Shown: positions 2-2,258 of the stretch, in pieces
How positions within the stretch are numbered: position 1 is the first letter of the stretch
How the letters are laid out: every line of letters begins with the position of its first letter
DNA from: Burkholderiales bacterium PBB1
GTDB lineage: Bacteria; Pseudomonadota; Gammaproteobacteria; Burkholderiales; Burkholderiaceae_C
Direction of reading: 5' to 3'
DNA: 64,000 nt
NCBI GenBank assembly: GCA_002255905.1
Contig: NKIN01000004.1
Span: 310,001 to 374,000, forward strand
The notes under the pieces: model-generated
What the model was told of the DNA's origin: nothing
Databases searched by the model: none
Seen by the model: the letters and a program-made list of their open reading frames with translations, nothing else
Translations under genes and position numbers: made by a program

Positions 2-412
2 TACCTGCGCACCGAAGGCGAGTACCACACGCTCGAACTCACGGCCAGCGCGCGCGAGGTGCTGCGCGGCGAGGTGCAACTGCTGCTGCGCGAGCCGAGC
101 GCTGCAACCTCGACAGCGCGCGGCAAGCGCCGCGGCGCGGCCACCTCACGCGGCAGCAGCACCAAGGACAAGGCGCCGCCCGTTCCGCTGGACGACGAAG
201 CCACCGAGCGCTTCGGCGCCTTGAAGGCCTGGCGCGCCGAAGTGGCCCGCGAGCACAACCTGCCGGCCTATGTGGTGTTCCACGATGCCACGCTGGCCGA
301 GATGGCGCGTGCGCAGCCGCAGTCGCTGGACGACCTCGCGCAGATCAGCGGTGTCGGTGCGAAGAAGCTCGAAGCCTACGGACGAGAGATCCTGCGGGTA
401 TTGCAAGGCTAG
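2..412 (+). CDS. recQ: ATP-dependent DNA helicase RecQ, C-terminal fragment
   Basis: Only the last 136 codons are present; the gene enters from the left edge. The fragment begins in the RQC-to-HRDC region (YHTLELTASAREVLRGE) and ends with an HRDC domain (about residues 65-136) carrying the helix-hairpin-helix-like SGVGAKKLEAYG. RecQ is a 3'-5' helicase acting in recombination and fork repair, and HRDC modulates DNA binding. The helicase motor lies outside the window, so the RecQ name rests on this tail. The restriction-modification cassette starts 53 bp downstream. Confidence 0.85.
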   Translation, partial: YLRTEGEYHTLELTASAREVLRGEVQLLLREPSAATSTARGKRRGAATSRGSSTKDKAPPVPLDDEATERFGALKAWRAEVAREHNLPAYVVFHDATLAEMARAQPQSLDDLAQISGVGAKKLEAYGREILRVLQG

Positions 413-465
413 GTGAATGAGAATTCCGGATCTCAAGTGCCTAGCTGACTCCGGACACGACTCCC

Positions 466-1068
466 ATGACCGTCAAACGAAACAAGCTTGACCCAGCGAA
501 GCTGAATCAGAACGCCTCACTGCCCTTCGAGCTGCGCCTTGAAGATTTCCGACTGGCGATCCAGGATGTCTACGATTTCTTTTTCGACGTAAACAACCAT
601 CTGGTTGGTAAAGGCTTGGAACGCCTCGATGACACCTTGCGTCCGGCCATCATGTCTGGGGTCCTATCGGACATGTTGACGGCTAGCTTGGCCAAGCACT
701 CGCGAACGCTGATCGTGAATGCCTATTTCAATGGTCATCCAGACTTGGTCGTCAGAGGGCGATACCCAAACAATGCCATTAAATCTGGCGAACATGGCGT
801 TGAGATCAAGACCACTCGAAAGTCGGGCGGGGCTGTCGACACCCACGGGGCCCGGCAACAGTGGATGTGCGTGTTTGTTTACCAAGTCGACAACAGTACC
901 GAGCCCGCGACGGAGCGTCGCCCTATGACGTTCACCGAGGTGTATCTTGGGCAAGTCGAGGTGGCTGACTTTCGGAAAAACGCGCGTAGTGAGTTGGGTA
1001 CGCGTACTGCAACCCTGCATGCAGAAGGAATTGCCAAGCTCAGAAAGAGTTGGCTGTACTTGAGTTGA
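466..1068 (+). CDS. Putative Type II restriction endonuclease (PD-(D/E)XK)
   Basis: A 200-residue protein with a PD-(D/E)XK-type core: Pro92-Asp93 (HPDLVVRGRYPNN) followed by Glu113-Ile-Lys115 (GVEIKTTRK), the usual metal-binding and catalytic spacing of restriction nucleases. It converges tail to tail with a DNA methyltransferase gene, leaving 5 bp between the stop codons, which is typical of Type II systems. Its bases and codons are clearly less GC-rich than the flanking recQ and lpxR-like genes, suggesting horizontal acquisition. The recognition sequence cannot be read from the protein. I infer that it cuts the site protected by the adjacent methyltransferase. Confidence 0.78.
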   Translation: MTVKRNKLDPAKLNQNASLPFELRLEDFRLAIQDVYDFFFDVNNHLVGKGLERLDDTLRPAIMSGVLSDMLTASLAKHSRTLIVNAYFNGHPDLVVRGRYPNNAIKSGEHGVEIKTTRKSGGAVDTHGARQQWMCVFVYQVDNSTEPATERRPMTFTEVYLGQVEVADFRKNARSELGTRTATLHAEGIAKLRKSWLYLS

Positions 1069-1073
1069 GGTTG

Positions 1074-2204
1074 TCAGTTGGAGTCGACCCGCAGCGCTGC
1101 CAATCGGGGAATGGCTTCACGTGCCAAGTCGAAGTACGTCGGATCTCGTTCGACGCCGACACTTTGATAGCCAACTGCTTCGGCCGCAGCCAAAGTGGAC
1201 CCCGAGCCTGCAAAGGGATCTGCAACCAGCCCTTCACCGAGCGGCAGCACGCCACGTACAACCTTCCTGAGAAACGTTTGCGGTTTCAGGCTGGGGTGGC
1301 CGGCTATGTTGCGCTCCGTGGTGCGCGTAGGCGCTGACTCGATGACATCACCAAAAGGCTGGTCAGCGGAAATGCGCCGAAAGCCCCCAGTGCCCCATTT
1401 GCGCAAATTGTCCTGAACACGGCCCTCGATCGGCTTTCTAAAAAGCAGCCAAGGCTCCCACATCGATCGTGGCATCACGCTCACGCCTGAAAACTCGATA
1501 TGCGCGGCCTTCGGCCGATCGCCGCCGCGCATTGTCATGGTCAGACGAGCCAATTCACCTCGACGCTCGAGGCCGGAATGGGCCAGTGCACTGGACACGA
1601 TGTACGACAACAAGGGATTGCTAGCGACAACCACATTCGCGCCCGGCACCAATACTTTCATCAAGCGTCGCCCCCACGCCTGAAAGAACCTTTCAAGCTC
1701 CTTCAGATCGGCTGGCGTCAAAACAGTGAATCGCGGAAGAGGTGACCGCTTCGAGCCGTCAAAGCTCGGTGGAACTCTCCAAATGCCACCGCCTCTGCCC
1801 CGGCGCAATTTTTCTTGTTCTTCGACTGAATACTCGACCAATCCATAGGGCGGGTCTGTCACGACAGCATGGATCGAATTCGGCGGTTGCCGCTCCAACC
1901 ACGAATTGCAGTCGTCGAGAATCAACCGAGCTCTTCCAAACTGAAATGATTCCGACTCGTTGTTTGCGGCTTCTAGGCTAGGCCGTTCCGTCTCGGCAAA
2001 TCCATGCAAGGCGTACTGTGCTCGATCGGTGCGCGCGAATAGCGCGGGAGTATTCAAGCGAAGGTATGAGCGCACGGACGATGCAGGGACATCGCCAATC
2101 AACTCAATCACGCTACTGGTGATTTCTTGTAGCGTTGCACCCGAAGGCCGTTCCTCCAAAGTTTGGACGATGGCGTCTCGTACCTCCCCAGGTTTTCGTC
2201 TCAT
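1074..2204 (-). CDS. DNA methyltransferase (beta-class, probably N6-adenine) with N-terminal winged-helix-like region
   Basis: A 376-residue S-adenosylmethionine-dependent DNA methyltransferase. DPPY is at about residues 117-120 and the SAM-binding DPFAGSGS at about 329-336, so motif IV precedes motif I (beta order). DPPY favours N6-adenine, but N4-cytosine is not excluded. Residues 1-70 (GATLQEITSSVIELIG, then SVRSYLRLN) look like a winged helix and could contact DNA or regulate the cassette. An in-frame ATG exists at 2258, but the ATG at 2204 is chosen: GGAG (2212-2215) sits 7 nt before it, and a good promoter overlaps the longer N-terminus. It protects host DNA from the convergent endonuclease at 466-1068. 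Confidence 0.85.
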   Translation of the reverse strand: MRRKPGEVRDAIVQTLEERPSGATLQEITSSVIELIGDVPASSVRSYLRLNTPALFARTDRAQYALHGFAETERPSLEAANNESESFQFGRARLILDDCNSWLERQPPNSIHAVVTDPPYGLVEYSVEEQEKLRRGRGGGIWRVPPSFDGSKRSPLPRFTVLTPADLKELERFFQAWGRRLMKVLVPGANVVVASNPLLSYIVSSALAHSGLERRGELARLTMTMRGGDRPKAAHIEFSGVSVMPRSMWEPWLLFRKPIEGRVQDNLRKWGTGGFRRISADQPFGDVIESAPTRTTERNIAGHPSLKPQTFLRKVVRGVLPLGEGLVADPFAGSGSTLAAAEAVGYQSVGVERDPTYFDLAREAIPRLAALRVDSN

Positions 2205-2229
2205 GTTGAGCCTCCAAAAGCGAGGATTC

Positions 2230-2258
2230 AGTATAGACGTCTGGACGTCTTGGGACAA
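2230..2258 (-). promoter_or_regulatory. Methyltransferase promoter with palindromic operator in the spacer
   Basis: Read on the minus strand: -35 TTGTCC (2253-2258), a 17-nt spacer and -10 TATACT (2230-2235), about 25 nt before the chosen ATG. The perfect inverted repeat AGACGT-N4-ACGTCT (2235-2250) fills the spacer and touches the -10. This is a classical place for a repressor operator. No separate controller (C) protein gene is present, so the methyltransferase's own N-terminal domain is the obvious candidate regulator (inference). Confidence 0.6.

What the first reader, a model, noticed from the sequence alone, without database searches (positions are those of the whole stretch)
2204..2258. 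Palindromic operator in the methyltransferase promoter: possible self-repression
The inverted repeat AGACGT-N4-ACGTCT sits exactly in the 17-nt spacer of a TTGTCC/TATACT promoter. The encoded methyltransferase has an extra N-terminal winged-helix-like region, and no C-protein gene is present. Some methyltransferases are known to repress their own gene by an N-terminal HTH; this cassette would fit that type.
Basis: partly seen in the sequence, partly recalled or inferred. Interest (0 to 1): 0.6.

Follow-up and report, generated by a model that had tools for sequence, protein, structure and literature searches.

The report
Self-repressing methyltransferase operator, conserved across phyla
A DNA-modifying enzyme of a bacterial restriction-modification defence cassette most likely switches its own gene off by binding, through a built-in winged-helix domain, a twin GACGTC palindrome inside its promoter; this element is unchanged in more than 100 related cassettes from many bacterial phyla.

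Summary
GACGTC-TG-GACGTC (2236-2249) lies inside the 17-nt spacer of a TTGTCC/TATACT promoter of a beta-class DNA methyltransferase gene (1074-2204, minus strand), convergent with a PD-ExK nuclease gene (466-1068). The 16-bp dyad occurs once in the genome. In 81 of 81 loci (window plus 80 relatives, many phyla) GACGTC-N2-GACGTC lies 20-72 bp before the methyltransferase start, all 12 specified bases invariant, mostly in the promoter spacer. Residues 1-74 are predicted with good confidence as a winged helix. In three actinobacterial plasmid cassettes this domain is a separate small gene before the methyltransferase gene, and the operator stays. Twenty-nine relatives lacking the domain also lack the operator; two of them carry a different (XRE) fused HTH. 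Most likely: autorepression by the fused winged-helix domain, as in SsoII-type regulatory methyltransferases, but with another DNA-binding fold, another methyltransferase class and a convergent layout. Caveats: binding and repression are not shown; domain gain or loss maps to one event on the tree; and since each half-site is itself a palindrome, GACGTC could also be the enzyme's own recognition site (promoter-methylation feedback). New variant of a known kind.

The parts
466..1068 (+). R: putative type II restriction endonuclease, 200 aa, convergent with M
   Evidence: ORF; no Pfam or NCBIfam match; homologue beside M in most related loci; invariant P92-D93 ... E113-x-K115, i.e. PD-ExK signature, in 57 aligned sequences
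1074..2204 (-). M: DNA methyltransferase, 376 aa, beta class (TDPPY at 116-120), N6_N4_Mtase
   Evidence: PF01555 E 2.7e-14; predicted fold matches CcrM, TTHA0409, M.RsrI and others
2004..2204 (-). N-terminal winged-helix domain of M (residues 1-67)
   Evidence: AlphaFold2 pLDDT 84 for residues 1-74, order H-(E)-H-H-E-E; PDB winged-helix matches Z 8.5-10; weak HARE-HTH/DUF7669 matches in relatives
2055..2084 (-). Third helix of the winged helix (residues 41-50, ASSVRSYLRL), presumed recognition helix
   Evidence: DSSP H41-50; S42 S43 R45 S46 L48 invariant in 48 aligned sequences
2211..2215 (-). Ribosome-binding site GGAGG
   Evidence: sequence
2230..2235 (-). -10 hexamer TATACT
   Evidence: sequence; best promoter
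2236..2249 (.).
   Evidence: 16-bp dyad unique in genome; 12/12 bases invariant in 81/81 loci
2253..2258 (-). -35 hexamer TTGTCC
   Evidence: sequence

Best explanation
The element is the operator of the methyltransferase gene. The N-terminal winged-helix domain of the methyltransferase binds it, presumably as two subunits, one per GACGTC, eight bp apart centre to centre on a two-fold axis. Bound protein covers the spacer between -35 and -10 and shuts RNA polymerase out of the promoter. After entry into a new cell the promoter is free and M is made fast; as M builds up it represses itself and settles at a low level, while the convergent nuclease gene is read from its own promoter (no such operator there). 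This gives M-before-R timing and dosage control without a C-protein gene. Shown: the sequence element, its invariance, its place in the promoter, the predicted fold, and co-occurrence of domain and operator. Inferred: that the domain binds it, the stoichiometry, repression rather than activation, and the effect on R.
For: 81/81 loci carry GACGTC-N2-GACGTC 20-72 bp before M; all 12 bases invariant although flanks and the middle dinucleotide vary; spacing is 2 in 83 of 85 successive pairs; operator start is 8-10 nt after the start of the best -35 in 68 of 81, i.e. inside the spacer. N-terminal winged helix predicted, third helix nearly invariant. Census over several phyla: domain and pair both present in 121 rows (about 112 distinct loci), both absent in 32 rows (29 distinct), domain without intact pair in one locus only, seen twice (L098/L181), an orphan M without R that keeps one intact half. 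0 of 29 domain-less relatives have even one GACGTC in 330 nt upstream. In L089, L090 and L091 the domain is a separate 72-74-aa ORF overlapping or abutting the M ORF, with the operator before it. In L141 and L158 an XRE-type HTH (Pfam HTH_31, E 5e-14 and 5e-17) replaces the winged helix at the N-terminus of the same M family. No pair upstream of R in 60 loci. Fixed spacing fits a protein dimer better than a plain methylation mark.
Against: No binding or expression data. On the M tree the domain-less rows need only one change, so co-occurrence of domain and operator counts as about one event. Each half-site is a perfect palindrome and tolerates no change in 81 loci, which is unusual for a winged-helix half-site and would be natural for the enzyme's own recognition sequence. 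An activator role is not formally excluded.
Confidence: 0.72

Rival explanations
1. Promoter-methylation feedback: GACGTC is the recognition sequence of this R-M system itself, and M represses its gene by methylating the two sites in its promoter (as reported for CfrBI, LlaDII and AhdI), without the winged helix acting as a repressor.
For: Each half is a palindromic hexamer, as type II recognition sites usually are, and not one base varies in 81 loci. Reviews describe promoter-site methylation as a known control of M genes (PMC3874152; PMC12707154).
Against: A spacing of exactly 2 bp is not needed for it. Relatives that share the invariant residues of the presumed target-recognition region but have no winged helix have no GACGTC upstream of M (0 of 29; residues). 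GACGTC is not notably avoided in M and R coding sequence (49 seen, 60 expected), own genome (O/E 0.84), or carrier genomes (0.81) against non-carriers (0.90), though lack of avoidance is weak evidence.
Confidence: 0.13
2. The winged-helix protein is an activator or a dual regulator in the manner of C proteins rather than a plain repressor.
For: In actinobacterial plasmids it is a separate small gene before M, like a C gene. MerR-type activators act from within the spacer (general knowledge).
Against: Spacers are mostly 16-18 nt and many -35/-10 hexamers are near consensus, so no activator is needed; no operator before R.
Confidence: 0.08
3. The element is bound by a host protein, or is inherited without function.
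For: Nothing positive was found; kept for completeness.
Against: It is invariant in cassettes from many phyla and on plasmids of unrelated hosts, while the rest of the intergenic DNA is unalike.
Confidence: 0.03

Closest known systems
Regulatory methyltransferases of SsoII/Ecl18kI type (N-terminal HTH represses own gene; PMC6100179, PMC12707154)
   Same: DNA-binding domain of about 70 residues fused to the N-terminus of M; palindromic site overlapping the M promoter and nearly unique in the genome; no separate C gene
   Different: Winged helix instead of a C-protein-like HTH; beta-class N6/N4 methyltransferase instead of C5-cytosine; convergent R instead of divergent; operator in the promoter spacer instead of +7 to +21; same element across many phyla
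Promoter-methylation control (CfrBI, LlaDII, AhdI)
   Same: Palindromic hexamers of a type that could be recognition sites lie in the M promoter
   Different: Two copies at fixed 2-bp spacing, tied to the presence of a DNA-binding domain; specificity of this M unknown
C proteins of type II R-M systems
   Same: In three actinobacterial relatives the regulator is a separate small gene at the head of the M operon
   Different: Winged helix, not XRE/lambda-type HTH; element before M, none before R
HARE-HTH and winged helices that read DNA methylation (DpnI, SAMD1, KAT6A)
   Same: Winged-helix fold; weak profile resemblance to HARE-HTH
   Different: HARE-HTH best E only 3e-3; no evidence here that methylation is sensed

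Membership tests
SsoII-type regulatory methyltransferase | DNA-binding domain fused to the N-terminus of M | tested here: met
   Winged helix predicted, pLDDT 84; PDB winged-helix matches
SsoII-type regulatory methyltransferase | Palindromic operator overlapping the M promoter | tested here: met
   2236-2249 in the 17-nt spacer; conserved 81/81
SsoII-type regulatory methyltransferase | C5-cytosine methyltransferase catalytic domain (as in the described members) | tested here: not met
   PF01555 N6_N4_Mtase with TDPPY; structure nearest CcrM
SsoII-type regulatory methyltransferase | C-protein-like (XRE) HTH | tested here: not met
   No XRE family match; winged-helix order of elements. XRE form seen only in relatives L141 and L158
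SsoII-type regulatory methyltransferase | M binds the operator and represses its own gene | not testable with these tools
   needs gel shift and reporter assay
Promoter-methylation control (CfrBI/LlaDII/AhdI) | Cognate recognition site in the M promoter | tested here: inconclusive
   Specificity unknown; no avoidance signal for GACGTC; no site in domain-less relatives
C-protein controlled R-M | Separate XRE-type C gene | tested here: not met
   Only M and R in the cassette
Type II R-M cassette | M gene beside a nuclease gene of PD-(D/E)xK type, conserved as a pair | tested here: met
Type II R-M cassette | Restriction activity | not testable with these tools
   needs an enzyme or plating assay
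HARE-HTH (PF05066) | Profile match of the domain | tested here: inconclusive
   8 of 48 relatives match weakly, best E 0.0032; the window's own domain does not

The most novel reading that the evidence does not exclude
Both readings at once: GACGTC is also the sequence that this methyltransferase modifies, and the winged helix reads the same sequence and its methylation state, so that the promoter directly senses how fully the cell's DNA is protected.
Probability: 0.15. Interest if true: 0.82.

Novelty: new variant of a known kind. Interest (0 to 1): 0.6.

Why it matters
Autorepressing methyltransferases are described for C5-cytosine enzymes with a C-protein-like HTH. Here a beta-class enzyme appears to use a winged helix, and its operator is unchanged across many phyla, which suggests a self-contained control circuit that travels with the cassette and needs no host factor. 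The family also shows the regulatory part as a fused domain, as a separate gene, and swapped for an XRE domain, so it is a good natural test case for how R-M control evolves. Because the half-sites are palindromic hexamers, one methylome and one gel shift would decide whether operator and methylation target are the same sequence.

Tried and rejected
TTG start at 2258: rejected, relatives align from ATG 2204. Scan of viral contigs for AGACGTCNNGACGTCT: 28 places, none near M, R or the domain, so the bare element elsewhere is probably chance. Winged-helix profile over 398 Pseudomonadota genomes, viral contigs and the domain against plasmids: apart from one lone copy, only the same M family, so no other partner shows what the domain binds. 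That lone divergent copy next to M in L088 has GACGCT-GC-GACGTC before it, an anecdote. Self-site and genome avoidance of GACGTC: no clear signal, and no other palindrome stood out, so the specificity stays unknown. Literature on GACGTC methylomes: two haloarchaea with a GACGTC motif; whether their enzymes belong to this family could not be checked. Papers on AatII/ZraI genes: nothing useful. The CfrBI and LlaDII originals are not held; cited through reviews. XRE-fused relatives L141/L158 have other short dyads near their promoters, too short to count as evidence.

Full report
What is there. The window holds a two-gene cassette between the end of a recQ-like gene (HRDC domain) and an lpxR-like gene followed by uvrA. 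R (466-1068, plus) and M (1074-2204, minus) are convergent, five bases apart. M is a DNA methylase (PF01555, E 2.7e-14) with TDPPY before the cofactor motif, i.e. beta class; its model is nearest to CcrM, TTHA0409 and other N6/N4 enzymes. R has no profile match but P92-D93 ... E113-x-K115 are invariant in 57 aligned sequences, the PD-ExK signature.

The promoter element. On the minus strand: TTGTCC, 17 nt, TATACT, GGAGG, ATG. The spacer holds GACGTC-CA-GACGTC (plus strand 2236-2249, GACGTC-TG-GACGTC). The longer 16-bp dyad occurs once in 3.25 Mb. One genome-contig scan with M gave 80 loci of 61-77% identity, from Pseudomonadota, Nitrospirota, Chloroflexota, Acidobacteriota, Verrucomicrobiota, Planctomycetota, Gemmatimonadota, Myxococcota and others; R lies beside M in most. 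All 80, and the window, have GACGTC-N2-GACGTC 20-72 bp before M. The 12 specified bases do not vary once. The middle two bases do (TA 25, CA 24, TG 14, CC 9, others 9), as do the flanks. Of 85 successive GACGTC pairs upstream, 83 are spaced by 2. In 68 of 81 the element begins 8-10 nt after the start of the best -35 hexamer, that is, it fills the spacer; in seven the best -35 overlaps its first half (TTGACG). The loci were chosen by M protein alone, so the upstream agreement is not built in.

The N-terminal domain. Residues 1-74 fold alone with pLDDT 84 as helix-(strand)-helix-helix-strand-strand. VIA-align finds winged-helix proteins at Z 8.5-10 over about 60-70 residues (TtgV, Fur family, BlaI/MecI, SAMD1 and KAT6A winged helices); Foldseek E-values are weak (0.03 at best), as expected for so small a domain. 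P5, G6, R9, D10 and the third-helix residues S42, S43, R45, S46, L48 are invariant in 48 sequences that are otherwise 41-70% identical to the window's. No curated family claims it; HARE-HTH and DUF7669 are the nearest, and weak.

Domain and operator go together. Plasmid cassettes from Klebsiella, Raoultella, Pseudomonas, Rhizobium, Microvirga and Gordonia carry both. In Mycobacterium avium (L089), Gordonia hongkongensis (L090) and Iamia (L091) plasmids the domain is in another frame than M: a complete ORF of 72-74 codons that ends at about the M start (a GTGA overlap is possible in L089 and L090), with the operator before it. So the domain works as a unit of its own. In Nitrospirota, Chloroflexota, Verrucomicrobiota and Pseudomonadota samples, together with the earlier loci, 121 rows have domain and operator, 32 have neither, and 2 rows (one locus, L098 = L181) have the domain but only one intact half-site; that locus has no R. 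Without duplicates: about 112, 29 and 1. The 29 domain-less relatives share residues that are invariant in the presumed target-recognition region (RGGDRPK, PR, EPW, TG, RR), yet have no GACGTC at all in 330 nt upstream. Two of them, L141 and L158, carry an XRE-type HTH at the same place in the protein; L083/L084 have a separate MerR-type ORF before M. The family thus swaps its regulatory part.

How strong is this? The tree of the catalytic domain needs one change for the domain-less rows, so the domain-operator link is about one evolutionary event and must not be counted as 140 independent ones. What does not depend on that is the invariance: over the depth of the domain-bearing group the rest of the upstream DNA has been randomised, and these 12 bases have not.

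Mechanism. A paired winged-helix protein on a fixed-spacing dyad inside the promoter spacer is a classical repressor site; spacers are near optimal and hexamers often near consensus, so an activator is not needed. R has no such site (0 of 60). I therefore take it as autorepression by M, giving a burst of M on entry and a low set level later. SsoII-type enzymes do this with another HTH (PMC6100179: N-terminal residues 1-55 bind a 15-bp palindrome and repress the M gene; also PMC12707154, and PMC3874152). The steps after 'operator exists' are inference.

The open alternative. Each half is itself a palindrome. For a monomer's half-site that is unexpected; for a type II recognition sequence it is the rule (GACGTC is the site of AatII and ZraI, from general knowledge). 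Promoter-site methylation is a known control (CfrBI, LlaDII, AhdI). I looked for signs that GACGTC is the target: it is in the middle of the palindrome list, not depleted, in cassette coding sequence, own genome, carriers and non-carriers. This neither supports nor excludes it. The two readings can also both hold. A methylome of E. coli expressing M would settle it.

Verdict. Real, far more than chance, and best read as a regulatory methyltransferase of a new make: winged helix, beta class, convergent R, with the operator preserved across phyla. It is not a member of the SsoII group as defined (two defining features not met), but it most likely works like one.

Noticed in passing
window 59-465 and L004, L005, L006, L008, L013, L021: In seven loci, the window's and six others (mostly burkholderial), the R end of the cassette sits directly downstream of the recQ-type HRDC end, suggesting a shared insertion point or vertical inheritance there.
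   Followed up: partly
L141, L158: Same methyltransferase family with an XRE-type HTH fused at the N-terminus instead of the winged helix, and other short dyads near the promoter.
   Followed up: partly
L089:2340-2561, L090:2343-2558, L091:2265-2480: Winged-helix regulator as a separate, mostly unannotated small gene overlapping or abutting M in actinobacterial plasmids; a possible new kind of C-like gene.
   Followed up: partly
L088:2102-2284 (-): Unannotated standalone winged-helix ORF, 67 aa, divergent from M, with a near-operator GACGCT-GC-GACGTC upstream.
   Followed up: partly
L054, L052, L086/L094/L095: Operator variants: two pairs (L054), three half-sites in register (L052), an extra GACGTC 16 nt upstream (Klebsiella-type plasmids).
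   Followed up: no
L099: On a viral contig R and M are tandem (R then M), with the pair between them, instead of convergent.
   Followed up: no
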